Source of the DNA: a virus
IMG/VR virus record: IMGVR_UViG_3300044998_000338
Span: 1 to 45,257 of that record
DNA length: 45,257 nucleotides
Strand: one strand, 5' to 3'
Shown here piece after piece: positions 36 to 45,257 of this stretch; position 1 is the first letter of the stretch; each line of letters begins with the position of its first letter. Both the position numbers and the translations under genes were made by a program. Under the pieces are notes generated by a model. That model was not told where the DNA came from, ran no database searches, and saw only the letters and a list, made by a program, of their open reading frames with translations.

Positions 36-37
36 AG

Positions 38-109
38 CTCTGGGGGGAGGATTCGAACCTCCAACCTGCCGATTAACAGTCGGCTGCTCTGCCGTTGAGC
101 TACCCCAGA
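38..109 (-). tRNA. tRNA-Asn (anticodon GUU)
   Basis: Read on the minus strand it folds as a full cloverleaf: 7-bp acceptor stem TCTGGGG/CCCCAGA, D stem GCTC/GAGC, anticodon stem GCCGA/TCGGC with loop CTGTTAA, and T arm GGAGG-TTCGAAT-CCTCC. CCA is not encoded. It is the middle gene of a three-gene cluster at the end of the leftward operon and probably supplements host Asn decoding. The second copy at 44790-44861 differs by one base, which breaks acceptor pair 4-69. Confidence 0.93.
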
Positions 110-115
110 ATGTGT

Positions 116-223
116 CCCACGCTGCCAGTCTCGAACTGGCCCCACTGGACCCAGTGTTGCTGCTAACCCAGCAACCCCCGCCGAGGCGGGCTTCCAGTGT
201 GCTTCCAACTACACCAAGCGTGG
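116..223 (-). tRNA. tRNA-like gene with an expanded anticodon region (identity undetermined)
   Basis: The minus strand has a 7-bp acceptor stem CCACGCT/AGCGTGG, a textbook D arm (GTGT...GCAC with A14 and the GG of the D loop) and a T arm GCCAG-TTCGAGA-CTGGC. Between half-stems CTGGA and TCCAG, where a 7-nt anticodon loop is expected, there are 43 nt that form two extra hairpins (CCCGC-CTCG-GCGGG and GTTGCTG...CAGCAAC). No loop with U33 can be drawn, so no anticodon is assigned. It may be a tRNA with a small insertion, an unusual class II form or a decayed gene. The second copy (44868-44975) is identical, which argues against random decay. Confidence 0.6.
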
Positions 224-229
224 GCGATC

Positions 230-550
230 TCAGTTGCCCTGGTGGGTGCCCTCGGTGCCCGCAGCCGCACGGCGTGCGGTGCGGCTGTTGAGCACCTTCA
301 GTGCATCCTCTAGGAAGAGGATGGCCGACTCGTTCTCGACGCACTTGAACTGCGTCTCCTGGTAGTGCTCGAGCCGCTGCTTGGCGGCTGCGATCACCGT
401 CTCCACGAAGGCGCCGTTGGGGCGGATGCGCTCGTCGCCCCGCCCGAGGGGGCCGTTCTGCCAGTCGATCTGCAGCCCCGTCGCTCGGACGTAGCCGCCT
501 GCTGGCTTGCCTTCGTCGAGGAAGTTGGCTGTCGCCATCATCTGTTCCAT
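230..550 (-). CDS. Small protein resembling the Acb2/Tad1 hairpin family (candidate anti-defence)
   Basis: 106 residues. The start at 550 overlaps the stop of the upstream gene (TGATG). The C-terminal half is helical with the order F-x-C-x-E-N-E-x-A-I...LE-x-AL...L-x-S-R-T...G-x-E-G-T-H. From memory this resembles phage proteins with the hairpin domain of Acb2 and Tad1, which sequester cyclic-nucleotide signals of CBASS and Thoeris. That assignment was not tested by a search. The gene is absent from the second copy of this region at the right end, as expected of an accessory gene. If the family call is wrong it is an orphan phage protein. Confidence 0.45.
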   Translation of the reverse strand: MEQMMATANFLDEGKPAGGYVRATGLQIDWQNGPLGRGDERIRPNGAFVETVIAAAKQRLEHYQETQFKCVENESAILFLEDALKVLNSRTARRAAAGTEGTHQGN

Positions 551-801
551 CACTGCTCCTGCTTGTCGAACCAAGAACCAGCCACATCGATGAGTGTGGT
601 GTTGATCTCTTCCAGCAGCTCGATGATGCGGAGCTGCACCATCGAGCCCCAGGCGGGGACGTGACCGATCTTGCCGCCAGCACGCAGCTCGTTGGCTGCG
701 TTGCGGAGCAGCTCGTCCTTGATGGCAGCGACTACATCCGCCACCGTCAGCGCTGCGTCGGTCGCCTCGGGTGCGACCGTCTCTTCTCCTGCGTCGTACA
801 T
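550..801 (-). CDS. Small orphan protein, variable C-terminus (copy 1)
   Basis: 83 residues with an acidic N-terminus, then helices and a conserved core around GGKIGHVPAWGSMVQLRI. The start ATG at 801 has an SD GGAGGAG 5 nt upstream and overlaps the preceding stop. An allele or paralogue lies at 44982-45236; the two agree over about 65 residues and then have unrelated C-termini. The function is unknown. It is translationally coupled in a string of early accessory genes. Confidence 0.85.
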   Translation of the reverse strand: MYDAGEETVAPEATDAALTVADVVAAIKDELLRNAANELRAGGKIGHVPAWGSMVQLRIIELLEEINTTLIDVAGSWFDKQEQ

Positions 802-822
802 CAGATCTCCTCCACCTTCGAG
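614..822. repeat. Left copy of terminal direct repeat, block B
   Basis: Homologous to 45049-45257 with scattered substitutions, for example in the codons around 700-760. It covers most of the small orphan gene. The 380 bases between blocks A and B on this side are replaced by 63 unrelated bases on the other side. Confidence 0.9.
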
Positions 823-12962: not shown

Positions 12963-13910
12963 TCATTGTCCCCACCTGCCCTCCAGCCACATGTCGAGTT
13001 CAGATCCACTCGCTTGGATGTACCGTTGCGTGATCTCCACGCTCGAGTGGTTCAGGATGGAGCGGACCAGCATCACTGGTACGCCCGCCCTCAACAGATT
13101 GGATGCAGCGCTGTGCCGCAGCTGGTGCGGCGACACGTGCGCTGTGTTCGCCTGCTTGCACCACTTCGACAGCTCTCGGTTCACCGCCTGCGGATCCCCC
13201 CTCCAAGGGAACAGCAGCGGCGCTGAGCGCCTGTAGTGCAGCCACATGTCGACTGCCTCGGGCAGCCACGCCTCGTTCACCACGAGGTGAGGCAGCCGCT
13301 CAGCGAAGATCCGATGGACCGTGGTCCATCGCAGTGTGTCCTCCCCCCCTCCCTTGCGTGGGAAGTTGGCGATCGCTTCGGTCGTCAACTGCTGCGGTGT
13401 CAGCCGAGCAAGCTCCGCTCGACGCAGCCCACAGAAGAACCCTAACCCGAGGACCACTCGCTGGTAAGCACCCAAAGGGCGATCCCACAACGAGAGCCAC
13501 GTCTGATCGCTGATCGGACGAGGGTTCGTGTTGTTCACCTTGGGGCTGACGATGTGTACCCCCAAGTCACGGTGTGTCAACCCCTCCTGATGGCACCACT
13601 TGTAGAACGAGCGCAGGATCGTGCCCTCGAGCTGGTGCGTGGCAGCCGACCCACGGGTGCCACCACCACGTCGCTCACGCTCCCTCGAGAGCCAGGCCTC
13701 CATGTCCTGACGTGTAGCCGTCAGTACCGAGGCACGCCCTCGATAGGTGGCCCAGTGCTCGAGTCTCGAGCGGTATGTACGCAGAGTGGTCGGGCTCAGT
13801 CGCCGCACCTTGGTGCACCACGTGATGTATCGGTCAACGACATCCTGGTTTCGGAGTCTCTTCTGTGGTTCGAAAGAATCGAACTCGGTCACTGATTCGT
13901 CGTCTGTCAT
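12963..13910 (-). CDS. int: Tyrosine-type site-specific integrase
   Basis: 315 residues. N-terminal SAM-like arm/core-binding domain (about 20-110), then the catalytic domain with R163 (C-G-L-R-R-A-E), H262-x-x-R265-H266 (HQLRH), H288 (L-N-H-S-S) and nucleophile Y297 (Q-R-Y-I-Q). It integrates and, with an excisionase, excises the phage. Start ATG 13910 has GAGG upstream; in-frame codons further 5' run into the attP, so they are not used. This is the main evidence that the phage is temperate. Confidence 0.95.
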   Translation of the reverse strand: MTDDESVTEFDSFEPQKRLRNQDVVDRYITWCTKVRRLSPTTLRTYRSRLEHWATYRGRASVLTATRQDMEAWLSRERERRGGGTRGSAATHQLEGTILRSFYKWCHQEGLTHRDLGVHIVSPKVNNTNPRPISDQTWLSLWDRPLGAYQRVVLGLGFFCGLRRAELARLTPQQLTTEAIANFPRKGGGEDTLRWTTVHRIFAERLPHLVVNEAWLPEAVDMWLHYRRSAPLLFPWRGDPQAVNRELSKWCKQANTAHVSPHQLRHSAASNLLRAGVPVMLVRSILNHSSVEITQRYIQASGSELDMWLEGRWGQ

Positions 13911-13952
13911 CTGCATCCTCATCAGGGCCTTCGGCCACTGGGACGCAGAGAG

Positions 13953-13980
13953 AGCGGGTGAAGGGAATCGAACCCTCGCT
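13953..13980 (-). other. Putative attP core: 3' end of a tRNA-Gly
   Basis: On the minus strand this 28-nt stretch has a T stem-loop GAGGG-TTCGATT-CCCTT followed by acceptor strand CACCCGC and discriminator T. That is the 3' end of actinobacterial tRNA-Gly genes (5' end GCGGGTG). No 5' tRNA half is present, so it is not a gene. It lies 43 bp upstream of the integrase start, the usual position for attP. Integration would restore the 3' end of the host tRNA. Confidence 0.75.
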
Positions 13981-14023
13981 GTGTCGCTCTGCGCCCCAGC
14001 GGCCACGGAACGTGGCGCCGTAT

Positions 14024-20206: not shown

Positions 20207-20644
20207 ACCAGGCACAATGCGCCCCGAACGACAGCTGAGAACGGTGCATGCTCATGGGTTACTGCAGCGCTCGATCGGCCCGAGAGGACTGGCAACGCCT
20301 ACAGAACCGATCGACCGACAGCCTTACAGCGTAAGGTTAGGCGTCGATGGGCCCAACCCTCGGCGGCTGAGTGATCCCATCCACCACATAACCCCTGGTG
20401 AGTGTGTTTCGGTAGTGAATGCGTGTTCTATTTCGTGTGTTGAGCAGGGAGAATGCAGTGTGAGGACGTGTCCAGGGGACTGGCAGGGGGAGGGGGATGA
20501 GGGGGGGCGGGGGTGCGAGTCGCATGTATATATCTGGGGCCCCACGCAGATTCTGAACCTGTCATGTTCAGTGTCCGATCTGCGGACTGATGTCAGGAGG
20601 GTACCTGAGCTAGTCCTTGTTCTCACTTCGGCCCGAAACGAGAA
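20207..20644. other. Non-coding control region with G-quadruplex-type tract and inverted repeat
   Basis: No convincing gene. At 20486-20513 four G-runs (5, 5, 7 and 5 G) with loops of 1, 4 and 1 nt form a textbook G-quadruplex motif on the plus strand. An A/T-rich GTATATATC follows. At 20553-20571 lies the inverted repeat CTGAAC-N7-GTTCAG. Base composition differs from the coding flanks. Confidence 0.55.
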
Positions 20645-20744
20645 CAACCCCCGAGATCTCTCTCGGGGGTTGCTGCTCTGCCTGACACCAGCTCGACGCT
20701 GGCTGGCTCGTAGCCCCAGCAGTCCCGTAGTCGGGACACTGGGG
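20645..20744 (-). terminator. Two strong hairpins downstream of the minus-strand virion gene
   Basis: 20645-20672: 12-bp stem CAACCCCCGAGA/TCTCGGGGGTTG with a 4-nt loop. 20714-20744: CCCCAG...CTGGGG enclosing GTCCC/GGGAC. They begin about 10 nt after the stop at 20753 and probably end its transcript; the first also suits bidirectional use. Confidence 0.7.
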
Positions 20745-20752
20745 AGGATTGA

Positions 20753-21322
20753 TCACACGATGCGGAACTGGACTCGAGGCCCAGCCGACACGGTCGTCAG
20801 GGTCGTGGCCGAGGTGACATCAGCGAAGGCACCCGAGGTCGAGGCCTTGGCGTAGGCCACCGCCTGGGTGGCCGCAGCGGCGGTCGTGCCATGGCTGAGG
20901 TTGATGAAGGGCACGGTCGGAGAGGTGACCGTGCGGATGGTGGACTTGGTGGCGGGGTTCGCCTGCTGGCACACCGAGAACCACACCAGGCCCTGCTTGA
21001 TGACGAGCGAGCTGGAGGGCGTGATCGAGGTGAAGGCGACGGGGTTCCCATCGAGGGTGCCGAGATCCACCTGCAGCTCGCCAGGGCGGGCGTAGTTGAG
21101 GCCAGCGTCCTTGTAGATGCCGACTCGGATGACCGAGGAGGCGGCGGTGCCACCAGTGGTCACCTCGACGCCGACACGGTCGAGGGTGACCTGCTCAGCG
21201 AAGTAGTAGGGGACGAAGAGCTGCTGCTGGTCGGTGAGCAGCAGGGTCGACACGGGCCCAGGGACCGTGTACCACTCGGCGTTGCCGAGCCGATGACGGT
21301 AGGAGGGGGAGAAGAAGCTCAC
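20753..21322 (-). CDS. Probable virion surface protein (receptor-binding or fibre-like beta domain)
   Basis: 189 residues from GTG 21322 (SD AAAGGG). All-beta with the order V-P-Y-Y-F...T-L-D-R-V-G-V-E-V-T-T, V-I-R-V-G-I-Y-K-D-A, P-G-E-L-Q-V-D-L-G-T-L and I-K-Q-G-L-V-W-F-S-V, as in jelly-roll modules of phage fibres and surface proteins. It is the only structural-looking gene on the minus strand, isolated between terminators and a long hairpin leader. It could instead be a lysogeny-expressed surface factor. Confidence 0.6.
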   Translation of the reverse strand: MSFFSPSYRHRLGNAEWYTVPGPVSTLLLTDQQQLFVPYYFAEQVTLDRVGVEVTTGGTAASSVIRVGIYKDAGLNYARPGELQVDLGTLDGNPVAFTSITPSSSLVIKQGLVWFSVCQQANPATKSTIRTVTSPTVPFINLSHGTTAAAATQAVAYAKASTSGAFADVTSATTLTTVSAGPRVQFRIV

Positions 21323-21347
21323 GAGAAGCCCTTTCGGTGATGCGTTG

Positions 21348-21383
21348 TGATGGATGAAAGAGCTGGTCGCTCTTCATCCATCA
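21348..21383 (-). promoter_or_regulatory. Long leader hairpin of the minus-strand virion gene
   Basis: 15-bp stem TGATGGATGA(A)AGAGC/GCTCTTCATCCATCA with a one-base bulge and 5-nt loop, 26 bp upstream of the GTG start. It could control translation or be a processing site. Confidence 0.55.
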
Positions 21384-21737
21384 GCCACTCCGTCCACCGA
21401 ACTCGGGGCAGTCTCCTGCTTAAGCCTTCGAAGACTTCGCTTGGATCGCTTCGTCTTCGGGATCCCTCGCAGATTCCATCGGAGAGGGATCTGTCAGGCT
21501 CCTACACTCCGACAGTCGTGTAGTCGCCTCTTTACAGAGCCCTCTACTAATAAGGCGAAAAACGGGGGTGGTGTCCACTCTCATACTCAAGCATGCCCCC
21601 TGACCAGGGCATAACAGCGTTATCCACAGGGAAAGGTTTTTTTCTGTGGATGTAGACTCTTGAACCAATCCCTCCACCCGAAAGGGTGGTAACAGTCCGA
21701 AGTGGACAGTCAGCCTGATGCTCGAGAGGGAGCATGC
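21384..21737. promoter_or_regulatory. Control region upstream of the late operon, with DnaA-box-like inverted repeat
   Basis: TTATCCACA (21620-21628) is a consensus DnaA box. Its core ATCCACAG is repeated inverted at 21644-21651 around an A/T-rich loop with seven T. A small A/T-richer patch lies at 21545-21560. Hairpins GATCCCTC/GAGGGATC (about 21459-21490) and CCACCC-GAAA-GGGTGG (21674-21689) are also present. It may hold a replication origin or the late promoter; neither is proven, and no clear -10/-35 pair was found. Confidence 0.45.
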
Positions 21738-22196
21738 ATGGCTGACAACATGGCTCGGGCTCGAGCGAAGGCACACGACCCCCAGTACCGCTGGACCAAG
21801 GGTGACGACGGCAAGGACGTGATGCCCGAGGCGTGGGCCCACTACCTCGAGTGGCTCGTGAACCCCCTGCGGGTGCCCGAGACGGAGACGGACTACGCCG
21901 AGTCGGTGGGCATCGCCACCCGCACCCTGCGGCGCTGGAAGGAAGACCCTCGCTTCCGAGCTGAGTGGCGGGCACGTGGCCAGGAGGCCAACGTGTCGCC
22001 CGATCGGATCCAGGCCGTCACCGACAACCTGTGGCGGCAGGCAGCCAACGACAGCGGAGCGGCGGCGGTGCGAGCCGCCGAGCTGTACCTGCGGTACGTC
22101 GAGCTGTACCTGCCGACCGAGAAGCGAGTCGTGCAGGACGACAGCATCGACAAGCTCAGCGACGATGAGCTGGCGAAGCTGGCGGGCTACGCATGA
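21738..22196 (+). CDS. terS: Terminase small subunit
   Basis: 152 residues. N-terminal HTH-like part with Y-A-E-S-V-G-I-A-T-R-T-L-R-R-W-K (residues about 55-70), then helices and a C-terminal K-L-S-D-D-E-L-A-K-L tail. It recognises phage DNA for packaging. Start ATG 21738 with AGGGAG upstream. First gene of the late operon, two genes before the large subunit. Confidence 0.8.
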   Translation: MADNMARARAKAHDPQYRWTKGDDGKDVMPEAWAHYLEWLVNPLRVPETETDYAESVGIATRTLRRWKEDPRFRAEWRARGQEANVSPDRIQAVTDNLWRQAANDSGAAAVRAAELYLRYVELYLPTEKRVVQDDSIDKLSDDELAKLAGYA

Positions 22197-22723
22197 AGCC
22201 ATGCTGCAGGTGCAACGAGCGACCTCGAGCGGTTTCGGCTACAGGAAAGGTCCGCTCCTACTGCGGCGACTGCGATCGGGCGAAGCAGGCCCGCTACAGG
22301 GAGACGCAGCCCAAGAGGCCAAGAACTCCCATCTGCCCCAGGTGTGGCGAGCGTGAAAGAGTCGGCAGAGGGTACTGCCGACCCTGCGCCAACAAGTACG
22401 CCAAGGGATGGCGCTCCCGCAACGGCGATCACTCCCGTGAGTACCAGCGAGTCTGGCAGCGCACCAAGAAGTACGGGCTGACCCTCGAGGAACTCGAGGC
22501 CATGTACGAGGCGCAGGACGAAAGCTGCGCCATCTGCTCGCGCCACATCGTGCTCTTCGGAGGCCAGGGTGGGGCACATGTGGATCACTGCCACAGGACT
22601 CGGAAGGTGCGAGCACTACTCTGCGGCTCCTGCAACACCGCCATCGGGAAGCTCCGTGACGACCCGCACCTGATTCGCAAGGCGGCGGACTACGTCGAGT
22701 TCCACGCCCTGGTGGCCGCATGA
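22193..22723 (+). CDS. Recombination endonuclease VII-like HNH nuclease
   Basis: 176 residues. Two N-terminal zinc ribbons (C4-C7/C24-C27 and C48-C51/C62-C65), then the Endo VII core: C112-A-I-C115, H-V-D-H-C-H (129-134) and C144-G-S-C-N (144-148). HNH nucleases beside terminases often help packaging by nicking or debranching DNA; this one could also be a free-standing endonuclease. ATGA overlaps both neighbours. Confidence 0.9.
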   Translation: MKPCCRCNERPRAVSATGKVRSYCGDCDRAKQARYRETQPKRPRTPICPRCGERERVGRGYCRPCANKYAKGWRSRNGDHSREYQRVWQRTKKYGLTLEELEAMYEAQDESCAICSRHIVLFGGQGGAHVDHCHRTRKVRALLCGSCNTAIGKLRDDPHLIRKAADYVEFHALVAA

Positions 22724-26644: not shown

Positions 26645-26925
26645 TGGCAGCCGATCACTCAGCCGACCTTCTCGCCGCCTACTTCGGCGCCGACTCGGAG
26701 AACGTCTGGGTCCAGCTGAAGACGTGGCACGAGGTGGACCAGGGCCTCGAGGACTGGGAAGCCATCGTGGCGTTCTACGAGGTGGAGGGGCTCGACACCT
26801 ACGCCGACAACTTCAACGCCTACTGGATGCATGGTCCTGGTGGGGCCATCACCTACTTCGTGGCGATCAACCTTGCTGGTGACTCGCTCCTCGCCGCTGA
26901 CGGCGTCGAGCTGGCGTGGAGGTGA
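26644..26925 (+). CDS. Small hypothetical protein after the portal
   Basis: 93 residues, acidic, Trp/Tyr-rich (W-V-Q-L-K-T-W-H, N-A-Y-W-M-H-G-P-G-G). Coupled to the portal by TGATG. Possible head-completion or decoration protein by position only. Confidence 0.72.
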   Translation: MAADHSADLLAAYFGADSENVWVQLKTWHEVDQGLEDWEAIVAFYEVEGLDTYADNFNAYWMHGPGGAITYFVAINLAGDSLLAADGVELAWR

Positions 26926-26928
26926 TCG

Positions 26929-27474
26929 ATGGCCAACAAGCGCATCGATCAGCTCACCGCAGTCACGTCGGTTGGGGCAGACGACCTCTTCGTCGTCCTG
27001 CCCAACGGTGGTGCGGAGGCTCGCAAGATCGACGCCTCCGACTTCGCTGCCACATCGTCCAACACGGGACTGATGCTGGCGGCCGACAAGTCGAAGCTGG
27101 ACGCCATCGAATCTGGCGCCAAGAAGGATAAGACGATCGTCCCCTACTCGATGACGGGGACGATCAGCGTGGGGGCAGGCACGTGCCGCTTCTACGTGGA
27201 CGAGACGTGGACCATCTCGTCGGTGCGGGCCTCGGTCGGCACGGCACCGACTGGCGCTGCGCTCATCGTGGACGTGAACAAGAACGGGACGACGATCTTC
27301 ACGACGCAGTCGAACCGCCCCCAGATCGCCGTGAGCACGAACACCGACGTGGCTGATGCCATCGAGGTGTCCTCGCTGGCGAGCGGTGACTACCTCACCG
27401 TCGACATCGATCAGGTCGGCAGCACGATCGCTGGCGCTGATCTCACCGTAACCATCGTGCTCACTCGAGGGTGA
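26929..27474 (+). CDS. Fibre-like structural protein
   Basis: 181 residues. The start K-R-I-D-Q-L-T-A-V-T-S...D-D-L-F-V-V-L is the anchor seen at the N-terminus of many phage fibre/head-fibre proteins. A-A-D-K-S-K-L-D-A-I-E-S-G-A is the usual linker repeat, and a C-terminal beta domain of about 120 residues follows. Probably attached to the capsid or tail. Confidence 0.75.
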   Translation: MANKRIDQLTAVTSVGADDLFVVLPNGGAEARKIDASDFAATSSNTGLMLAADKSKLDAIESGAKKDKTIVPYSMTGTISVGAGTCRFYVDETWTISSVRASVGTAPTGAALIVDVNKNGTTIFTTQSNRPQIAVSTNTDVADAIEVSSLASGDYLTVDIDQVGSTIAGADLTVTIVLTRG

Positions 27475-28350: not shown

Positions 28351-29105
28351 TGACTGCATCTCGGGTACAGGTCGAGAACGGGAGCACCCTTGCCGACTAC
28401 TACGTCGGCACGGATAGCCGCACCTATGGTGGCGGGACGACCGACATCCCCACGTCGATCCTGCTCGACGGGACCGCCAACACCGCACTCAGCATCATCG
28501 CTGAGGACGCCGCCATCGCTGGTGGCGAGGCGGGCATCCTGGCCATCGGCCAGCGCAAGGACACTCGAGCGTCGACTGCAGGTGCTGATGGTGATGCCAC
28601 CATCATGACGTTCAACGCTCAGGGGGCGCAGTACGTCGAGGCATCCCGCAAGGTCGTGGCGGTGTCGGGAACGCCCTCGGGCCTCACGACCGCCACCACG
28701 ACCTACACCTCAGGCGATGTACTCGGTGGCGTGTTCTCAGTGGCGAGCTGCGCTCGCCACAACGGCGGCTCTGGCCGCATCGTGGGCGTCTACATGACTG
28801 ACGACTCCGACGTGATCGGTGCAGTCGACCTGTTCATCTACGACACGACGGTCAGCCCTGGCTCCGACAACGCAGCCTTCAACCCGTCCGATGCCGACAA
28901 CGAGCTTGGCTTGGGCGTCATCCAGATCCCGACTGCGATCGATGCGGGCTCGAACCGTGCGTCCTACTGGAGCGGCTCGGTTCCCTTCGTCTGCACTGGC
29001 TCATCCACCACGTTGTACTTCGTGGCGGTCACCCGCTCGGCCAACGCCGTATTCGGCGGTGGCGCCACTTCACTGACGTTCCGCTTCCTCATCGAACAGG
29101 ACTGA
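28350..29105 (+). CDS. Beta-rich structural protein
   Basis: 251 residues, Gly/Ala/Thr-rich. Middle part G-R-I-V-G-V-Y-M-T-D-D-S-D-V-I-G-A-V-D-L-F resembles beta-sandwich domains of phage decoration or fibre proteins. Not assignable further. Confidence 0.72.
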   Translation: MTASRVQVENGSTLADYYVGTDSRTYGGGTTDIPTSILLDGTANTALSIIAEDAAIAGGEAGILAIGQRKDTRASTAGADGDATIMTFNAQGAQYVEASRKVVAVSGTPSGLTTATTTYTSGDVLGGVFSVASCARHNGGSGRIVGVYMTDDSDVIGAVDLFIYDTTVSPGSDNAAFNPSDADNELGLGVIQIPTAIDAGSNRASYWSGSVPFVCTGSSTTLYFVAVTRSANAVFGGGATSLTFRFLIEQD

Positions 29106-29108
29106 GTC

Positions 29109-29825
29109 ATGTCAGCTGGTCACGGCTGGATCGACCTCATCGGCCCAGGAGCTTCGCCCGCCTTCGGGGCGAACGAGCACTGGTCGCAGGTGCTCTTCGG
29201 CGGGGGCACCATGACGACTGCCCCTGGTGACGGCAACGCTGACGTGTTTCGCCTCGCATGCCCATCGTCAGGGAACCGTGTCGGCGTTCGCCACACCCGA
29301 TTCAGGGCCTGGAACGTCGAGGCGCTGTGCAAGTTCCGCCCCATCTCGGTTGCGACACTTGGCTGGTTCTTCGTTGACGTGCGCTGCTCGCCTTTCATCA
29401 GCTCGAGCGGCTACAGCGGTGTCGATCCCCTGTGTCGGGTCGGCACGTTCAAGCAGACCATCAACAACCAGAACGTCGGCTACGTGATCCGAGACGGCTC
29501 CGCACGCACCTACGGCGGTGAGGTTGCAAGCACTGGTGGCGCCACGTCAGCCACGAACTGGAACTGGCTGCGTGTTCGTGTCGTCGGCAACGAGTGGCAG
29601 GTCAGGTTCTGGCCCGACTCCGTGCCTGAGCCCCAGGTGTGGCACAACACCGCAACACTCCCTCGTGAGTATGGTCCGAACCGACCGACTGGTACCGAGA
29701 TGGGCGACAACACATACGTCGCACTGAACCTCGAGTACGGCTCGGGCGCTGCCACGGTCGACATCGCCCACCTCTACGTCCGTGACCTCGACAGGATGCC
29801 AGCCACGCTGAACAGCGAGTACTGA
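29109..29825 (+). CDS. Structural protein with a concanavalin/laminin-G-like sandwich
   Basis: 238 residues. The run N-W-N-W-L-R-V-R-V-V-G-N-E-W-Q-V-R-F-W near residue 150, preceded by matching strands and followed by V-D-I-A-H-L-Y-V, is the usual pattern of ConA/LamG-like carbohydrate-binding domains. It may bind surface glycans from the capsid or tail. Confidence 0.65.
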   Translation: MSAGHGWIDLIGPGASPAFGANEHWSQVLFGGGTMTTAPGDGNADVFRLACPSSGNRVGVRHTRFRAWNVEALCKFRPISVATLGWFFVDVRCSPFISSSGYSGVDPLCRVGTFKQTINNQNVGYVIRDGSARTYGGEVASTGGATSATNWNWLRVRVVGNEWQVRFWPDSVPEPQVWHNTATLPREYGPNRPTGTEMGDNTYVALNLEYGSGAATVDIAHLYVRDLDRMPATLNSEY

Positions 29826-29826
29826 C

Positions 29827-30582
29827 GTGTCAGTACTTCTGCTTCGCCCGTCGCAGGAAGCGGGCGATGTCTCCATCGCCCTCACTCCGATCACCGTCAC
29901 GGGCACGCCCGTGGCGCTCGCCGTCACGCCTGGAGAGGTCAGCGTTGCGCTGACCCCCATCACGCTCACTGCGACCCCGCAGACCTTGGCGGTCAGCGTG
30001 GGCGAGGTGAGCATCGCACTGACGCCGATCACGGTGACGGCGAGCGTCGGCACACTGAGCGTCAGCCCAGGCGAAGCGACGATCGCCCTCACGCCCATCA
30101 CGCTTACCGCCACGCCGCAGGCGCTCACCGTCACGCCTGGCGAGGTGACGGTGGCGCTGACGCCCATCACTGCCACGTTCACTCCTGTGGCGCTGAGTGT
30201 CAGTACCGAGGTGAGCGTCGAGCTGACGCCGATCACGCTCACTGCGAGCCTCGGCACGCTCGGCATCACTCCAGGCGAGGTGAGTGTTGCACTCACCCCC
30301 ATCACGCTGACGGGGACACCGCAGACACTAACGATCACCCCAGGTGAAGTCAGCGTGGCACTCACGCCACTCACCTTGACGGCCACTCTGGGGACGCTCG
30401 GCATCACGACCGAGGCGACGATCGAGCTGACGCCGATCACCATCACCGCCTCACTCGTGGCACTGGGCATCAGCCCAGGCGAGGTCACGGTTGCGCTCAC
30501 GCCCGTGACCCTGACGGCCTCCCTCGGCACCATGGTTGTAGCCGTCGATGGCAGGGGCTTCTGGGGGCTGGCGATCCGCTGA
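29827..30582 (+). CDS. Tandem-repeat beta protein (ten 22-23-residue repeats)
   Basis: 251 residues from GTG 29827. After about 12 residues it consists of ten repeats of the type G-E-V-S-V-A-L-T-P-I-T-L-T-A-T-P-Q-T-L, eight of about 23 and two of about 22 residues, ending in a short Gly/Arg tail. Alternating hydrophobic and Thr/Ser positions suggest a stacked beta fibre or solenoid. The unit length may vary between relatives. Likely a capsid or tail appendage. Confidence 0.8.
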   Translation: MSVLLLRPSQEAGDVSIALTPITVTGTPVALAVTPGEVSVALTPITLTATPQTLAVSVGEVSIALTPITVTASVGTLSVSPGEATIALTPITLTATPQALTVTPGEVTVALTPITATFTPVALSVSTEVSVELTPITLTASLGTLGITPGEVSVALTPITLTGTPQTLTITPGEVSVALTPLTLTATLGTLGITTEATIELTPITITASLVALGISPGEVTVALTPVTLTASLGTMVVAVDGRGFWGLAIR

Positions 30583-36152: not shown

Positions 36153-37430
36153 ATGGCGACTCGTCGCAGGACCACTGTCGACAGTGCGGGCTCTCGCCCT
36201 GGATCGTCCTACCGCCAGGAGCAGGCGGCGAAGAACTTCGCACCGCCGCCCGTCAGTGTCTCCCCGAACGACATCTACATGGGTGGACAGGCTGCCAAGG
36301 AGATCTTCCTCGGCGGCGCTGCGCCGCCCTCGCAGCAGAACCGCTCGGCGCTCGAGCTGGGCTGGAGCGACCAGCTCATCGACGCCGTCGCCAACCAGCT
36401 CGACAGCCAGACCACGCCTCCCGATGCACCGCCCTACTACGAGCCTTCGGGCGGTGGTGGCGGGGGCGGTGGTGGCGGCTATGCCGCCGCCATCCAGGCG
36501 CAGCTGCAGGCTGAGCTGGATCAGCAGATGGCTGCCATCGGGCGCATCTACGAAGAGCGCCTGAAGGGCATGACGAGCCAGAAGGACGCCAACGCTGGTG
36601 TACTCGCTCAGGCGCTGACCGACCATCAGGCGGCGATCGCCAAGATCTCGAACGACTACAAGGTGCAGCGTGCTGCCGTCGATCAGTCGATGGCCAAGCT
36701 GTACGCCGACACGCTGAACCGTGTCACCGAGAACAAGAACAACACCGCCAAGGTGCTGTCGCAGTTCGGTGTGGATCCGAACCTGTTCGCTCCCGCTGCT
36801 GCGAAGGTGGACAACTACGTCAGTCAACAGCAGCAGGTCCAGCGGGAGTATGGCTCCCGCATGGAGCAGCTGAGCGATGCCTCGATGGCCAACCAGAAGG
36901 CAACTGGTGAGTCGATCAAGCAGGCTGGTGCCACGCAGCTCGAGCAGAACTTCAACAAGTTCCAGACGCAGCTGAACCTCGAGCGCATGAAGCAGGAGCA
37001 GGCCGCACAGGCCAGCTACAACGAGGGGCTCCGCTCGCTCGCCATGCGTTCCGCTGGCGGTGGCGGTGGTGGAGGTGGCAGCAGCTCTTCGGATCTGAAC
37101 TGGGCCAAGTTCGCCTACCAGCAGGAGAAGGATGCTCGGGACTACGAGCTGGACCTCATGAAGCTCCAGATGGGTCAGAAGGGTGGGTTCGATCTGGACT
37201 CACTCGACCCCAACAGTGACGCCTACCTCGCTGCCGTGACGGGCGGCGACCTCAAGGGTGCCGCCTCATGGCTGCAGGAGCAGTTCAACGCTGGCGCCTT
37301 CGATAAGGCTGCCTATCGAGGCAACGTGCGACAGCTGCAGCAGAGCTACGGCAGCAACCGACTGGCGTCGGTGGCACCGCAGACGAAGGGCGACTACAAG
37401 CAGTACCTCACGCAGAAGTACAAGCGGTGA
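36153..37430 (+). CDS. Internal virion protein with poly-Gly linkers
   Basis: 425 residues. Disordered basic N-terminus, a run of about ten Gly (near residue 105), a long helical/coiled-coil centre (about 115-285), a second Gly run followed by Ser (about 295-310) and a helical C-terminus. The architecture suggests an ejected or DNA-associated core protein. Confidence 0.72.
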   Translation: MATRRRTTVDSAGSRPGSSYRQEQAAKNFAPPPVSVSPNDIYMGGQAAKEIFLGGAAPPSQQNRSALELGWSDQLIDAVANQLDSQTTPPDAPPYYEPSGGGGGGGGGGYAAAIQAQLQAELDQQMAAIGRIYEERLKGMTSQKDANAGVLAQALTDHQAAIAKISNDYKVQRAAVDQSMAKLYADTLNRVTENKNNTAKVLSQFGVDPNLFAPAAAKVDNYVSQQQQVQREYGSRMEQLSDASMANQKATGESIKQAGATQLEQNFNKFQTQLNLERMKQEQAAQASYNEGLRSLAMRSAGGGGGGGGSSSSDLNWAKFAYQQEKDARDYELDLMKLQMGQKGGFDLDSLDPNSDAYLAAVTGGDLKGAASWLQEQFNAGAFDKAAYRGNVRQLQQSYGSNRLASVAPQTKGDYKQYLTQKYKR

Positions 37431-37433
37431 TCT

Positions 37434-40400
37434 GTGGTCGTCCGCATCGAGAAGAGCAGCGGTGGTCGCACCGTCTCCAACGCTGATCGGCTGAGCAGCA
37501 CCCTCGAGAAGATCGCTCTGTCGGGCGCTTCCGCTTCGGAGAAGCAGAAGGCGCTCGCCACTGCGCAGAACAAGAAGAAGCCGAACATCGCTCTGCGGGT
37601 GGTCGGTCGGGCGCTCGACATCGTCGACACGCCCCGAGCCTTCGTTGCTGCGGGCCTGAGCGAGGGCACCGACGCTCTCACCGATCTGTTCAAGCTGGAC
37701 GGACACGAGACGCTGAACGCCTCGTGGAAGGACTTCTGGGACGCCACGTGGTCCAACAAGGGCTTCGGCAAGCACTTCCAAGAGAAGATGGACGCCGAGA
37801 ACCTCGCTCGAGAGAAGCGAGGCGACAAGCCGAAGAAGACCTTTGGTGTCATCAGTGATGACAACAAGTGGGCCAAGCGTGGCATCGGTCTGCTGGGCGA
37901 CATCGCCGCAGACCCGCTGACCTACTTGGCGCCCGAGGCAACGCTGGCCAAGGTCGGTGGGCAGAAGGCTGTCGCTCGAGCGCTGTTCAGCCAGGCTGAC
38001 GATGTAGCCGCCCACAAGCTGGCGCAGAAGATCGCTCGAGACGGCATGACCTCGCTGTCCAAGGGTGAACTGAACACCGTCAATCAGGTGCTGCAGAAGA
38101 CGGGCAAGCTCGGCACGGATGAGGCCATCCGTGGCGGCATGCACTGGACCGTTCCTGGGACTGGCCGAGTGGCCAGCAAGGTGACCCGCTCGACCGCTGG
38201 GCCGAAGCAGGTCCAGGTCGTGCCACAGTCGCTGGCCCGAGTCACGCCCAAGGGCGTCTTCGAAGCGACCCGCAAGACGGTTCGCAACACCTTCAGCGGC
38301 ACTCGTGTAGCCGACCTCGTTGCAGGCCAGGACGCCATCGTCAAGCGCATGGTGTTCACTGGGTCGCCAGACCAGGCACGCCAGGCGTTCCTGGCGCTGG
38401 ACACCGCACGCTCCAAGCGACTCCTGACCCGTCGCATGCTGCAGGAGCTGGAGAACAGCTGGGCTGGGCTCGAGCACGATGCGAAGAAGCTCGGTGTCGA
38501 TGGCACCGAGGTGTACCGAGCGATGGGCATGGACGATGCTGCCATCGCTGAGCTGCCCGATGCGATGCAGCAGTTCGTCAAGCGGGCTCGGGAGTTCTCC
38601 GAGGAGGCTCGCCTGTACGCCAACGAGGTGGCGGGCGAGCAGTGGCTGGTCAAGCGTGAGCAGTGGCAGCCCGCTCTGGCGAGCGAGGACTTCAAGGAGA
38701 TCCTGAAGGAGTCGGGTCGCTCTCCCCGCATGGCTGGGAAGAGCTTCAAGCCGTCGGGGATCGAGAAGCGAGCCAAGCTCGTCGCTGGCGAGGAGTTCCT
38801 GGGCGAGACGCTGCTCGACGCCAGTGAGTACCAGAAGCTCCATGGTGTGGCCCTGGACCCTCGAGGCCAGGCCGAGAAGATCCTGCAGGACCGCATGCAG
38901 CGCATGGGGGCCGAGCACGTCTACGCCATGTTCGAGGACGACGTGTTCAAGGCGATGCCCGCCTACATCCGTGACCTCGGCTACCGCACCACCTACCGCA
39001 GCATCGAGGCCGATCTCGCCAAGAAGGGGATCGCCCTCGACATGTACCGCACCGTCTTCGACGACAAGGCGGTGGAGGCAGCCAAGCGCCGTTCCAAGGC
39101 GATGGGCGTCTGGTACGACGCCCGCCAGAAGGTCAAGTCCCAGGCAGCTGTAGCCGAGTCCGCACGCAAGCGTGCTGACGCTGCCAAGGCGACCGAGGAT
39201 GCCTACGCCCTCGAGATCGCCAAGATCAAGGAGAAGGCCTTCCTCGACGCCGACCTGGCGGATGCCCGCCTGGCTGCACAGGAGGGCCATACAGCTCGTC
39301 TCAGGGCCGCTGGGGGGGGTTTGGAGCGGGAGGCTGCAGAGGCCTCTCAGCGGGCTTCTCAGGCGCTCTCAGAGCTGGACGTGATGAACGCCAACTTCAC
39401 CGAGCGGTTGGAGGAGGCGGTCAACGCCGTCGCTGAGTCCAACAAGGCGCTGGGGAAGGTGCAGCGCCAGCTGAACTACCTGACCCAGGAGCGGGATCGG
39501 GTACGTGCTGGCATCGTCAAGGTCTACGAGCGGGCCGACGAGCGGGTCGCCAAGGAGCTGACCCGCCGCAAGGAGCTGGCCAGCCTCGAGAACTACCTGG
39601 CCGAGATCGAGGACCGCATCGCTGGGCTGCACGCCCAGATCGTGAACGGCGGGGTGCGTCCTGGGATCGGTGATGAGATCACCGCCATCAAGGACAAGCT
39701 GCACCAGCTCGTCACCGACCCGAACAACAAGAAGCGCTTCGACCTCCTGCGCATGGCGGTGGAAGCCGCCGACTCCCACGACGTGGCCAAGATCAGGGGC
39801 CTCGACATCCGTGACGTGCGCAAGATCCTCGAGGGGCTCGGGGTGCGTGACATCCCTCAGGCCCGCAAGCTGCTGGCCTCTCGGGATCGCATGGTCGACG
39901 CCCTGAAGCAGCAGCTGCTGAACCTGCAGACCGAGCAGAAGGTCTTCGACCAGACCACCCGCTACGTGGTGGGTGCGGAGATGGACTACTGGCGCCAGGG
40001 GCTGACCCAGGTGCGCCAGCAGATCGAGGCGGTGGCTGCCAGTAACGACCCGCTGGCGGCGCAGGCAGCCGAAGTGCTCGAGCGCATGTCCACCGTCAGC
40101 GAGAAGGGCACACTGATCAACGCCGTCAATGGTGACGACATCTGGTTCCAGGGCGTGCGAGGCACGCAGCTGGATCTGACCCGCCAGGTCAACGATGTCA
40201 TCCAGGGTGGTGGCCTCGAGGCGGGGTTCCCTGGTCTGCCCTTCTTCGCCAACGACGGGTTCGACGACATCGCCAGGGACATCTTCGAGATGCCTGGCCC
40301 CAAGCCGAAGGTCGCTTCAGTGAAGCTGCGGGTGGCCAACCCTCGGGTCTATGGGCCCGACGTGGCCACGCTCGGCAAGGTTGCCGACATGGACCCGCAG

Positions 40401-43181
40401 TGGAACCACCTCGTGTATGGCAACGCTGCGCCAGCTGGCTTGCGTCAGGCGCAGGCCGACATGCTGCGCAACGCCTTCGCCATGGGTGCGATCGACATCA
40501 ACGATCTGAAGCCCGTCACCCAGGAAGGCCTCGACGTTGTCGATGGCTGGTGGGATGACTTCGTCGGTGACGTGGATGCGCTCATGGAGCATGGCTACGA
40601 CGCCGAGAGTGCGATCACCTCGGCGCTCAGTGTCAGCCACTTCGACGACTACATCGATCGTCTCGGTGGGCAGCCGCAGCTGCGTGAGCTGGGTGAGCAG
40701 GTGACCTCCGAGGAGTACCTGTTCAACAAGTTCATCTACGAGGTGGGCGGTCACGCTGATGACAGCGTGAAGCGCCGCATCGGTCTGGCCTTCGCAGACA
40801 AGCTCGAGGCCGAGGGCTTCGATGGCTTCCAGTACGCCAACCGCTCTGGCGACTACGTGACGATGCCGCTCCATCCTTCACAGGTGGAGGCGGCAGTCGA
40901 TGCGGGCTATGCCCTGGTCGGTCAGAAGGTGGATGATGCCATCCAGTACCTCGACATGGGCGAGGGGATCCTGCCTGCTGACCACGTCCGTCTGTACTCG
41001 ACGGATGGCGTGAACTGGACGATGGATCGAGCAGCAGCGCAGGCCGCTGCAGGCGAGGGCGATCTGCTGTACCGCAACGTTCCCACCAACCAGGCGCAGC
41101 CCACCATGGTGGGCGAGGTGCCCAACGCCGCCAAGGTCGATCCTGCCAACCCGCAGCTGCAGGTGGCACGCCAGGAGCTGTTGGAGCTCCAGGCCGACAT
41201 GGATCGCTACGGCCAGGAGCTGGTGCGCAACTACAGCCAGCTCATGGGCGACATCAAGGACCGCATGACCGAGGGGGCGAAGTACGCCAAGCAGCTCGAG
41301 CAGGAGCTTGGCGCCAAGGTCAGCCAGCACACCGTCACCCTGCAGGACGCTGTAGCCGCTCATCGTGCCAACCGTGCCCGTCTCCGCTCGGTGGAGCGGG
41401 AGCTGGCCGACACCCGCAAGAAGCTGCGTGCCGATCACCGTGCCGCACGCATCGAAGAGTTCGACCTGCGTCAGCGGGCGGACGACATCTTCACCAAGGC
41501 CGATGAGTACGAGCGTCGGACTCGCACTGCCTACGAGCAGCAGATGGAGGCCATCGGCAACGAGATGGCGCAGGCCCTCGAGTTCCCGATGGTGATGCAG
41601 GAGCAGGCGATCGCACAGTCGCTGCGACTGCAGGCGCAGGCAGCCAAGGCTGAGGCCGACCTCGCTCGTGCGGGCAAGAGGGCGCTCAAGGCCGAGGCGG
41701 CTGTCGCCAAGCTGAAGGATCCTGGGACGCTCACCAAGATCGAGCAGGTCGTCATGCCTGCGGGCTACGCCAAGATGGGCTGGTCCCGCATGGCTCCCGA
41801 GTGGATCGTCGAGGGGCTCGCTGAGGGCACCAAGTTCATGGGGCCCGATGCGCTGCGTGGCGTCATCCGTGCCTACGACAAGTTCACCAACCTGTGGAAG
41901 GCCTACGCCATGCTCACGCCTGGCTTCCACTTCCGCAACACCTTCGGTGGCTTCTTCAACAACTGGACCGATGGCATCGACATGGGCCGCTACAGGGAGT
42001 ACCTGTCGCTGGCCAAGCCCTACAACCGTGCCCGTCGTTCAGGGATGGAGCACGCTGATGCGCTGCTGGCGCTGAAGAAGGCGCACCCCAACGACCCTGA
42101 GGGTGTTCGCATCTTCACCGAGATCATCGAGTCGGGCATCCTGACGGGTGGCCAGTCTCGAGAGATGATCATCCACACCGCTCTCGGTGGGAACTGGAAG
42201 CCCTGGAGTGCGGACAACAAGCTGCTGCAGGCCTCGACCGCTGGCATCACTGGGCCTGGCGGTCGGCACCTGCCTGGCACTGAGAACGTGGAGAACTTCC
42301 TGCGGGGCGCTGTCGCCATCGACACGATGCGCAAGGGCGGCGACCTGAACGCCGCCATCGATCGGGTCTACAAGCTGCACTTCGACTACGACGATCTCTC
42401 GCAGTTCGAGCGGGGCGTGATGCGTCGCATCATCCCCTTCTACACGTGGACCCGTAAGAACATGCCGCTGCAGATCGAGCAGTTCTTGACGAACCCCAAG
42501 GCCTACACCCGCCTGATGGCGATCGAGCGCAACATCGAGCTGGGGGTCGAAGAGGAGGAGGTCGTCCCCTCGTGGTTCGAGGACAACCTCGTCACGATCC
42601 ACACGCCTTGGAAGCTGGGCAAGGGCGAGAACAAGGCGGACGTGTACCTCATGCCCGACCTGCCCTACAAGGACATCACCCGCACACTCAGCCCTCGACA
42701 GATCATGTCGATGACCAACCCCATCATCAAGACGCCGCTCGAGCTGTGGGCTGGCAAGCAGTTCTTCAGCGACATCCCCTTCAAGGGGACGTACCAGGCT
42801 GCCCCTGAGAGCTGGAACAAGATGGGCGTGACCGATGCGCTGGGCGCCATCGGCAAGGCCAAGCAGGGCGCTGACGGCAAGTGGATGATGACCGACCGCA
42901 CCGCCTACGTGGTCGAGCAGTTCTTGCCGCTGATGGGGCGGGCACGTCGTGCCCTGCCCTCGGAGGACAAGTACAAGGACCGCCAGATGACCTCGATGAT
43001 GTCGATGCTCTTCGGCGTCGGGGCTCGGACGAACACCACTGCCGACAAGGAGGGCGAGTTGTATCGACGGAACAAGGAGCTGGAGCAGCAGGCGAAGCTG
43101 CTCGAGTCGCTCGGGTACATCGAGAAGAAGAGCAGCTCCACGAAGAAGACCGTCAGGCCCGTCAACTTCTCACCGTCATGA
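37434..43181 (+). CDS. Giant virion protein (1,915 residues), with ART-like and polyvalent-type C-terminal regions
   Basis: GTG start at 37434. Layout: helical N-terminus; coiled coil at about 560-720 and again 760-830; an ADP-ribosyltransferase-like region at about 895-1150 (W-F-Q-G-V-R-G, L-P-F-F-A-N-D-G-F-D-D, V-K-L-R-V-A-N-P, G-F-D-G-F-Q-Y-A-N...H-P-S-Q-V-E-A); another coiled coil at about 1240-1430; and a C-terminal region with R-N-T-F-G-G-F-F-N-N-W (about 1500) and I-P-F-Y-T-W-T-R-K-N-M (about 1665), typical of giant polyvalent or ejection proteins. It is probably injected with DNA or forms the ejection channel. The catalytic state of the ART-like part is unknown. Confidence 0.75.
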   Translation: MVVRIEKSSGGRTVSNADRLSSTLEKIALSGASASEKQKALATAQNKKKPNIALRVVGRALDIVDTPRAFVAAGLSEGTDALTDLFKLDGHETLNASWKDFWDATWSNKGFGKHFQEKMDAENLAREKRGDKPKKTFGVISDDNKWAKRGIGLLGDIAADPLTYLAPEATLAKVGGQKAVARALFSQADDVAAHKLAQKIARDGMTSLSKGELNTVNQVLQKTGKLGTDEAIRGGMHWTVPGTGRVASKVTRSTAGPKQVQVVPQSLARVTPKGVFEATRKTVRNTFSGTRVADLVAGQDAIVKRMVFTGSPDQARQAFLALDTARSKRLLTRRMLQELENSWAGLEHDAKKLGVDGTEVYRAMGMDDAAIAELPDAMQQFVKRAREFSEEARLYANEVAGEQWLVKREQWQPALASEDFKEILKESGRSPRMAGKSFKPSGIEKRAKLVAGEEFLGETLLDASEYQKLHGVALDPRGQAEKILQDRMQRMGAEHVYAMFEDDVFKAMPAYIRDLGYRTTYRSIEADLAKKGIALDMYRTVFDDKAVEAAKRRSKAMGVWYDARQKVKSQAAVAESARKRADAAKATEDAYALEIAKIKEKAFLDADLADARLAAQEGHTARLRAAGGGLEREAAEASQRASQALSELDVMNANFTERLEEAVNAVAESNKALGKVQRQLNYLTQERDRVRAGIVKVYERADERVAKELTRRKELASLENYLAEIEDRIAGLHAQIVNGGVRPGIGDEITAIKDKLHQLVTDPNNKKRFDLLRMAVEAADSHDVAKIRGLDIRDVRKILEGLGVRDIPQARKLLASRDRMVDALKQQLLNLQTEQKVFDQTTRYVVGAEMDYWRQGLTQVRQQIEAVAASNDPLAAQAAEVLERMSTVSEKGTLINAVNGDDIWFQGVRGTQLDLTRQVNDVIQGGGLEAGFPGLPFFANDGFDDIARDIFEMPGPKPKVASVKLRVANPRVYGPDVATLGKVADMDPQWNHLVYGNAAPAGLRQAQADMLRNAFAMGAIDINDLKPVTQEGLDVVDGWWDDFVGDVDALMEHGYDAESAITSALSVSHFDDYIDRLGGQPQLRELGEQVTSEEYLFNKFIYEVGGHADDSVKRRIGLAFADKLEAEGFDGFQYANRSGDYVTMPLHPSQVEAAVDAGYALVGQKVDDAIQYLDMGEGILPADHVRLYSTDGVNWTMDRAAAQAAAGEGDLLYRNVPTNQAQPTMVGEVPNAAKVDPANPQLQVARQELLELQADMDRYGQELVRNYSQLMGDIKDRMTEGAKYAKQLEQELGAKVSQHTVTLQDAVAAHRANRARLRSVERELADTRKKLRADHRAARIEEFDLRQRADDIFTKADEYERRTRTAYEQQMEAIGNEMAQALEFPMVMQEQAIAQSLRLQAQAAKAEADLARAGKRALKAEAAVAKLKDPGTLTKIEQVVMPAGYAKMGWSRMAPEWIVEGLAEGTKFMGPDALRGVIRAYDKFTNLWKAYAMLTPGFHFRNTFGGFFNNWTDGIDMGRYREYLSLAKPYNRARRSGMEHADALLALKKAHPNDPEGVRIFTEIIESGILTGGQSREMIIHTALGGNWKPWSADNKLLQASTAGITGPGGRHLPGTENVENFLRGAVAIDTMRKGGDLNAAIDRVYKLHFDYDDLSQFERGVMRRIIPFYTWTRKNMPLQIEQFLTNPKAYTRLMAIERNIELGVEEEEVVPSWFEDNLVTIHTPWKLGKGENKADVYLMPDLPYKDITRTLSPRQIMSMTNPIIKTPLELWAGKQFFSDIPFKGTYQAAPESWNKMGVTDALGAIGKAKQGADGKWMMTDRTAYVVEQFLPLMGRARRALPSEDKYKDRQMTSMMSMLFGVGARTNTTADKEGELYRRNKELEQQAKLLESLGYIEKKSSSTKKTVRPVNFSPS

Positions 43182-44657: not shown

Positions 44658-44706
44658 CTACCGCTAACGGTAGAGATACGAAACGGGGGCCCCTGTGGGC
44701 CCCCGT
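44658..44706 (+). terminator. Late operon terminator region
   Basis: A small hairpin CTACCG-CTAA-CGGTAG (44658-44673) is followed by a strong one, ACGGGGGCCC/GGGCCCCCGT with a 4-nt loop (44683-44706), then TTCTG... It faces the leftward tRNA cluster, so it probably stops both convergent transcripts. Confidence 0.8.
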
Positions 44707-44713
44707 TCTGCGT

Positions 44714-44787
44714 TGGGACATCCGAGTGGGACTCGAACCCACTACCTCCAGCCTGAAGCTGGAATGCTGCCGTTACACCACGGACGC
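44714..44787 (-). tRNA. tRNA with UCA anticodon (possible opal suppressor or Trp-UCA), CCA encoded
   Basis: Acceptor GCGTCCG/CGGATGT with encoded CCA (44714-44716), D arm GTGT...AGCA, anticodon stem TCCAG/CTGGA with loop CTTCAGG, giving anticodon UCA with U33 and G37. The T stem is 6 bp (AGTGGG/CCCACT) and no base 26 is present, both unusual. UCA reads UGA. No long variable arm, so it is not a standard tRNA-Sec. Alternative pairings that give other anticodons do not form a stem. A partial copy is at 1-35. Confidence 0.65.
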
Positions 44788-44789
44788 AG

Positions 44790-44861
44790 CTCTGGGGGGA
44801 GGATTCGAACCTCCAACCTGCCGATTAACAGTCGGCTGCTCTGCCGTTGAGCTACCCTAGA
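44790..44861 (-). tRNA. tRNA-Asn (anticodon GUU), second copy
   Basis: As at 38-109 except base 44858, which puts an A opposite C at acceptor pair 4-69. The mismatch may lower function and marks this as a different haplotype. Confidence 0.9.
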
Positions 44862-44867
44862 ATGTGT

Positions 44868-44975
44868 CCCACGCTGCCAGTCTCGAACTGGCCCCACTGG
44901 ACCCAGTGTTGCTGCTAACCCAGCAACCCCCGCCGAGGCGGGCTTCCAGTGTGCTTCCAACTACACCAAGCGTGG
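44868..44975 (-). tRNA. tRNA-like gene with expanded anticodon region, second copy
   Basis: Identical to 116-223, including both extra hairpins. Confidence 0.6.
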
Positions 44976-44981
44976 GCGATC

Positions 44982-45236
44982 TCAGCGCTGTGGCTCAGCG
45001 TTCCAGGCCACCTCGCAGATGAAGCTGAGCTTGTTGTCGATGGACTCGAGCAGCTCGATGATGCGGAGCTGCACCATCGAGCCCCAGGCGGGGACGTGAC
45101 CGATCTTGCCGCCAGCACGCAGCTCGTTGGCTGCGTTGCGGATCAGCTCCTCCTTGATGGCAGCGACTACATCCGTCACCGTCAGTGCTGCGTCGGTCGC
45201 CTCGGGTGCGACCGTCTCTTCTCCTGCGTCGTACAT
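44982..45236 (-). CDS. Small orphan protein, variable C-terminus (copy 2)
   Basis: 84 residues. The N-terminal 65 residues are nearly identical to the 550-801 product; the tail (S-I-D-N-K-L-S-F-I-C-E-V-A-W-N) is different. Its stop lies at the same distance from the tRNA cluster as the stop of the gene at 230-550 in the other copy. Confidence 0.85.
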   Translation of the reverse strand: MYDAGEETVAPEATDAALTVTDVVAAIKEELIRNAANELRAGGKIGHVPAWGSMVQLRIIELLESIDNKLSFICEVAWNAEPQR

Positions 45237-45257
45237 CAGATCTCCTCCACCTTCGAG

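What the first reader, a model, noticed from the sequence alone, without database searches (positions are those of the whole stretch)
44714..44787. Phage tRNA with a UCA anticodon, 6-bp T stem and missing base 26
The cloverleaf is good and CCA is encoded, but the only workable anticodon loop (CTTCAGG) gives UCA, which reads UGA. Many genes here end in UGA, so readthrough could extend proteins or hinder host genes. Phage suppressor tRNAs are known, but the combination of G37, 6-bp T stem and absent position 26 is odd.
Basis: partly seen in the sequence, partly recalled or inferred. Interest (0 to 1): 0.6.

Follow-up and report, generated by a model that had tools for sequence, protein, structure and literature searches.

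The report
Eroded phage tRNA with UCA anticodon
This uncultured phage carries a real but badly shaped tRNA gene whose anticodon happens to read UCA; it looks more like a decaying glutamate-type tRNA than a working stop-codon suppressor, so it is mildly odd but probably not important.

Summary
The tRNA-like gene is real and lies exactly where stated, on the minus strand, 1 nt from a good tRNA-Asn, at the 3' end of the minus-strand genes. ARAGORN calls it tRNA-SeC(tca) from the anticodon alone. Its Rfam tRNA score is 30.8 bits, just over the cut-off of 29; its tRNA-Asn neighbour scores 66-72 and UCA tRNAs in other viral contigs score 58-70. The UCA register, encoded CCA, G37 and 13-bp acceptor/T helix (7+6) are confirmed. 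"Base 26 missing" is better read as an anticodon loop 2 nt shorter than in the closest tRNA found, tRNA-Glu of mycobacteriophages GenevaB15/Aziz/Bongo, with T26 recruited into the stem. C32-G38 and U33.G37 are predicted to close the loop, unlike normal UCA tRNAs. The phage ends 68 of 71 predicted genes with TGA, the hallmark genes have no internal TGA, non-UGA backup stops do not exceed other actinophages, and no readthrough protein is evident. A loosely comparable "tRNA-Sec" in 385 T5-like phage records has a drifting anticodon loop, so UCA calls on weak phage tRNAs can be accidental. Best reading: an eroded Glu-like tRNA, at most a weak suppressor. No relative carrying it was found, so selection on the anticodon could not be tested.

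The parts
44714..44787 (-). tRNA-like gene, ARAGORN tRNA-SeC(tca), 74 nt
44754..44756 (-). nominal anticodon UCA in loop CTTCAGG (44752-44758)
44781..44787 (-). 5' acceptor strand GCGTCCG, pairs with 44718-44724 (CGGATGT; G1.U72 and G3.U70 wobbles)
44725..44743 (-). T arm AGTGGG-TTCGAGT-CCCACT, 6 bp
44714..44717 (-). C73 and encoded CCA
44789..44861 (-). tRNA-Asn(gtt), canonical (66.2 bits; the copy at 37-109 has 71.8 bits)
37..109 (-). second copy of tRNA-Asn in the overlapping contig start
44866..44976 (-). third tRNA-like element with extra hairpins in the anticodon region (copy at about 114-224)
44684..44705 (.). GC-rich inverted repeat CGGGGGCCC-CTGT-GGGCCCCCG between the convergent lysis genes and the tRNAs; likely bidirectional terminator (inferred; the terminator scan did not list it)
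   Evidence: read from sequence

Best explanation
The element is a genuine, probably co-transcribed phage tRNA gene of Glu-like ancestry that has eroded. A net loss of two bases in the anticodon loop, with T26 recruited into the stem, leaves a 7-nt loop whose frame nominally reads UCA, and one extra pair was gained in the T stem. The loop is predicted to be pinched shut by C32-G38 and U33.G37. I expect the RNA to be a poor substrate for charging and decoding and to read UGA not at all or very weakly. Shown: position, sequence, fold, low model score, nearest tRNA, TGA usage. Inferred: Glu ancestry, direction of change, co-transcription, lack of decoding.
For: Rfam score 30.8 against 66-72 for the adjacent tRNA-Asn, 58-70 for UCA tRNAs with CUUCAAA loops in other viral contigs, and a lowest score of 36.4 among annotated tRNAs of phage Bongo that were hit. 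Closest INPHARED match is tRNA-Glu(ctc) of GenevaB15/Aziz, 80% over 53 nt; that phage group is also the only viral contig with the same D arm and 5' anticodon stem. Bongo tRNA-Glu has the identical D arm GTGTAACGGCAGCAT. GAG is the most used codon in the phage (662), which would explain why a Glu tRNA was once useful. Hairpin energies: open loop -4.5, pinched -9.0 kcal/mol. In 86 phage tRNAs C32-G38 occurs once, and A36 is followed by A37 in 21 of 23 and by G37-G38 in none. T5-like 'tRNA-Sec' (385 records) has loops TTCAC, GTAAC, GCAAC among relatives and low scores of 27-38 bits. 68 of 71 predicted genes end in TGA.
Against: Acceptor and T arm are fully paired and CCA is encoded, which argues against long neglect. 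The 6-bp T stem needs a paired gain on both strands. Both strain copies agree through G37. Nearest-neighbour folding also pinches the working Glu loop through U32-A38 (0.97), so predicted closure alone is not decisive. Glu ancestry rests on an alignment with E = 4e-3.
Confidence: 0.55

Rival explanations
1. It is a working low-efficiency opal suppressor made during infection, giving a few percent readthrough of UGA in phage or host messages, as proposed for other phages that carry a suppressor tRNA without code change.
For: U33 and UCA are in register, CCA is encoded, T loop TTCGAGT and D-loop GG are intact. Precedents: phage Atu_ph07 carries a UCA tRNA while using UGA widely (PMC6102473); crAss-like phages show suppressor tRNAs without recoding, called pre-emergence (PMC7886860).
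Against: 68 of 71 predicted genes end in TGA. No UGA-interrupted TerL, portal or capsid gene. Three in-frame gene pairs of the form TGA-NNN-start (26925/26929, 29105/29109, 37430/37434) have their own start, and in two the TGA lies inside a Shine-Dalgarno-like GGTGATC. TAA/TAG backup stops are 9 against about 3 expected from the window's own background (p about 0.002), but two of the nine lie in the repeated contig ends and the excess over Bongo and OneUp is not significant (p = 0.31). G37/G38 and C32-G38 disfavour decoding.
Confidence: 0.25
2. It is kept for a non-decoding role: a tRNA-like decoy or replacement resistant to a tRNA-cleaving host defence, its altered anticodon loop being the point of the change.
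For: Mycobacteriophage tRNAs carry anticodon-loop mutations that are proposed to evade nucleases (PMC10264068). The neighbouring third tRNA-like element and the two tRNAs of the related phage MW202803.1 are also irregular in outline.
Against: No defence or nuclease partner was identified, the host is unknown, and a decoy need not be charged.
Confidence: 0.13
3. It is a selenocysteine-type tRNA, because UCA and the 13-bp acceptor/T helix resemble tRNASec.
For: UCA anticodon and 7+6 (or 8+5 with U.U) = 13 bp; bacterial tRNASec is 8/5 (PMC7609411).
Against: No long variable arm, 4-bp D stem, C73 instead of G73, 74 nt; Rfam tRNA-Sec (RF01852) is not reported for it (only the best match per clan is kept, so a weaker Sec match could be hidden).
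Confidence: 0.02
4. The odd loop is an assembly or sequencing error near the contig end.
For: The contig ends overlap imperfectly and start inside this very loop; the end copy of tRNA-Asn has an acceptor A.C mismatch that the start copy lacks.
Against: Both copies agree over the shared 36 bases, through G37.
Confidence: 0.05

Closest known systems
tRNA-Glu(ctc) of mycobacteriophages GenevaB15, Aziz, Bongo
   Same: D arm, T26, CCAG/CTGG anticodon stem core, G1.U72 wobble
   Different: Normal 7-nt loop TTCTCAA, 5-bp T stem, 61-62 bits; no CCA encoded at the same place
T5-like (Demerecviridae) element annotated tRNA-Sec or tRNA-OTHER
   Same: 74 nt, nominal UCA in some members, low Rfam score, non-A37
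   Different: Anticodon loop drifts to GTAAC/GCAAC in relatives; different acceptor and D arm; only the anticodon-T-arm part is similar, and the BLAST link is not significant (E = 7)
tRNA(UCA) in other viral contigs (L024-L029)
   Same: UCA anticodon and the same general D-arm type
   Different: Loop CUUCAAA with A37-A38, canonical arms, 58-70 bits; probably recoding phages (inference)
Opal suppressor tRNA of Agrobacterium phage Atu_ph07
   Same: UCA tRNA in a phage that uses UGA widely as stop (PMC6102473)
   Different: Its sequence was not compared here
Bacterial tRNASec
   Same: UCA and a 13-bp acceptor/T helix
   Different: Lacks the long variable arm, 6-bp D stem and G73

Membership tests
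tRNA (RF00005) | Score over the curated threshold with a complete cloverleaf | tested here: met
   30.8 bits against 29, marginal
UGA-reading (opal) suppressor tRNA | UCA anticodon in a 7-nt loop with U33 | tested here: met
   CTTCAGG
UGA-reading (opal) suppressor tRNA | Decoding-competent loop (A37 after A36, loop open) | tested here: inconclusive
   G37-G38 and C32-G38; predicted to be pinched, but folding also pinches a normal Glu loop
UGA-reading (opal) suppressor tRNA | UGA used as a sense codon or at readthrough sites | tested here: not met
   68 of 71 genes end TGA; hallmark genes uninterrupted; no clear readthrough site
UGA-reading (opal) suppressor tRNA | Charged and active in vivo | not testable with these tools
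   needs tRNA sequencing and a reporter
UGA-reading (opal) suppressor tRNA | Anticodon conserved among relatives | tested here: inconclusive
   no relative carrying the gene was found
tRNASec | Long variable arm and tRNASec model match | tested here: not met
   short variable loop; no RF01852 match reported
tRNASec | 13-bp acceptor/T domain | tested here: met
   7+6 or 8 (with U.U)+5

The most novel reading that the evidence does not exclude
A compact 74-nt class I tRNA with a 13-bp acceptor/T helix and no base between the D and anticodon stems works as a deliberately weak opal suppressor in a phage that uses UGA for nearly all its own stops.
Probability: 0.1. Interest if true: 0.6.

Novelty: new member of a known kind. 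Interest (0 to 1): 0.25.

Why it matters
If functional it would show that a phage can tolerate, or use, UGA readthrough while relying on UGA for almost every stop. As an eroded tRNA it is a caution that automated 'tRNA-SeC' or 'suppressor' calls on weak phage tRNAs, including those in T5-like genomes, can rest on anticodon loops that are not conserved.

Tried and rejected
Exact and relaxed tRNA patterns in viral contigs and GTDB genomes and protein searches with the endolysin, terminase, portal and 84-aa neighbour gave only the same phage (IMGVR_UViG_3300044961_000256, which lacks this region) and remote relatives. Of 32 such records searched for tRNAs, two hold a normal tRNA-Asn and none holds this gene. 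Alternative anticodon registers were considered: a 5-nt loop with anticodon CAG (Leu) fits homology but not tRNA geometry. Readthrough of the TGA between 36153-37430 and the 1915-aa gene 37434-43181 was considered: no homologue of the upstream protein was found to test fusion, and GGTGATC before GTG offers ordinary initiation. A possible excess of backup stops was not significant against control phages.

Full report
The window is a whole virus record of 45,257 bases, 63% G+C, a temperate phage by its integrase at 12963-14006, with terminase, portal and capsid genes related to environmental podoviruses; the nearest annotated record is MW202803.1, terminase 47% identical. Its two ends overlap imperfectly: 1-233 equals 44753-44985 at 232/233 and 611-822 equals 45046-45257 at 207/212, with 377 bp against about 60 bp between them. 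It is therefore probably a nearly complete circular or redundant genome assembled from at least two strains, and the contig starts inside the anticodon loop in question.

Observation. ARAGORN finds three tRNA genes: two copies of tRNA-Asn(gtt) and tRNA-SeC(tca) at 44714-44787 minus. The tca gene passes Rfam's tRNA cut-off only just, 30.8 bits against 29, whereas the tRNA-Asn copies score 66.2 and 71.8. Chance is not a serious explanation: E is 3.2e-6 for the tRNA family in this genome and it abuts a strong tRNA by 1 nt. The name SeC comes from the anticodon alone; the long variable arm of tRNASec is absent and no match to the Rfam tRNA-Sec model is reported.

Anatomy (minus strand): acceptor GCGTCCG/CGGATGT with G1.U72 and G3.U70, TG, D stem GTGT/GCAT with two G.U pairs, anticodon stem TCCAG/CTGGA, loop CTTCAGG, GGT, T arm AGTGGG-TTCGAGT-CCCACT, C73 and CCA. 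Acceptor plus T stem is 13 bp rather than the usual 12. A GC-rich inverted repeat at 44684-44705 follows the gene and separates it from the convergent lysis genes (read). The minus-strand order 84-aa gene, third tRNA-like element, tRNA-Asn, tca gene, inverted repeat suggests co-transcription (inference).

Ancestry. The best match among 50,697 phage records is tRNA-Glu(ctc) of GenevaB15/Aziz (80% over 53 nt, E 4e-3), and the only viral contig sharing D arm and 5' anticodon stem is an 83,412-base record, the length of the Aziz genome. Aligned with it, the window tRNA keeps T26 but its CCAG...CTGG core is separated by 7 instead of 9 bases, so two bases of the loop region are missing and T26 pairs with A44. 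GAG is the phage's commonest codon (662), so a Glu tRNA would have been useful. This ancestry is an inference from one weak alignment.

Can it decode? In the isolated hairpin C32-G38 pairs with probability 0.999 and U33.G37 with 0.81; the open loop costs 4.5 kcal/mol. The tRNAs with UCA and CUUCAAA loops show no such closure, although the Glu loop does through U32-A38, so this is supportive only. In 86 phage tRNAs, C32-G38 occurs once, and A36 is followed by A37 in 21 of 23. From general knowledge, A36-A37-A38 is the MiaA recognition motif, and EF-Tu prefers a 12-bp acceptor/T helix.

Does the genome look adapted to UGA reading? 68 of 71 predicted genes end in TGA, 2 in TAG and 1 in TAA (my own gene caller, with some uncertain calls). 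Mycobacteriophage Bongo and Gordonia phage OneUp regions give 21/25 and 20/30, so the bias is strong but in a known direction. Terminase, portal and capsid genes are open without internal TGA. Three adjacent gene pairs are in frame across TGA-NNN-start, the largest joining 36153-37430 to the 1915-aa gene 37434-43181. All three downstream genes have their own start codon, and in two the TGA lies in a Shine-Dalgarno-like GGTGATC, so ordinary coupled initiation is the simpler reading; no homologue was found to test fusion. TAA/TAG backup stops within 10 codons number 9 against about 3 expected, but two of these lie in the repeated ends and the comparison with Bongo and OneUp is not significant (p = 0.31; the controls are small).

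Comparative lesson. A 74-nt element called tRNA-Sec or tRNA-OTHER occurs in 385 INPHARED records, mostly T5-like phages. In nine representatives aligned here the anticodon loop varies (GCTTCAC, GCGTAAC, CCGTAAC, CCGCAAC) while much of the D and T arms is kept; scores are 27-38 bits where detected, and ARAGORN calls only some. UCA in such weak tRNAs is therefore not by itself evidence of suppression. By contrast the UCA tRNAs of contigs L024-L028 score 58-70 bits with normal loops. The T5-like element is an analogue, not a demonstrated relative: its BLAST link to the window tRNA has E = 7.

Precedents in the literature keep the suppressor rival alive: Atu_ph07 has a UCA tRNA although UGA is a common stop in phage and host (PMC6102473), and crAss-like phages show suppressor tRNAs arising without recoding (PMC7886860).

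Verdict. A real, marginal tRNA gene, most likely an eroded Glu-like tRNA (0.55), less likely a weak opal suppressor (0.25) or a non-decoding tRNA-like RNA (0.13). The main gap is the lack of any close relative carrying the gene, so selection on the anticodon could not be measured.

Noticed in passing
window 44866-44976 (-), copy about 114-224: Third tRNA-like element with 8-bp acceptor, D arm and canonical T loop TTCGAGA, but with two extra hairpins in the anticodon region. ARAGORN finds it only if introns are allowed (Ser gct with 18-nt insert, or Gly ccc with 36-nt insert but G33); fold z = -3.4. Possibly a tRNA with an insertion.
   Followed up: partly
window 1-822 and 44753-45257: Imperfect end overlap (98-99%) with an extra gene (about 230-550) in one copy only, and an acceptor-stem mismatch at 44858 in the end copy of tRNA-Asn: two strains in one contig.
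   Followed up: yes
window, all genes: Stop usage is 68 TGA, 2 TAG, 1 TAA in 71 predicted genes, more extreme than in two other high-GC actinophages.
   Followed up: partly
window 37430-37434, 29105-29109, 26925-26929: Adjacent in-frame genes separated only by TGA-NNN; the largest pair would give a protein of about 2340 aa on readthrough.
   Followed up: partly
window 29827-30582 (+): Predicted protein made of imperfect repeats of about 23 aa (PGEVSVALTPITLTATPQTL-like), just upstream of the probable scaffold and capsid genes.
   Followed up: no
L020 (MW202803.1) 20569-22366: Related phage has an annotated RNA ligase gene and, just downstream, irregular tRNA-Trp (6-bp D stem) and tRNA-Met that Rfam's tRNA model does not detect; these tRNAs lie at the same syntenic place as those of the window.
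   Followed up: partly
L030, L120-L127 (T5-like phages): The tRNA-Sec annotated in some T5-like genomes belongs to an element whose anticodon loop is not conserved, so the annotation is probably misleading.
   Followed up: partly
L115 3840-3869 and L116 2926-2955: Unannotated tRNA-like sequence with CCTTCAGG in an apparently 8-nt anticodon loop, not called by ARAGORN.
   Followed up: no
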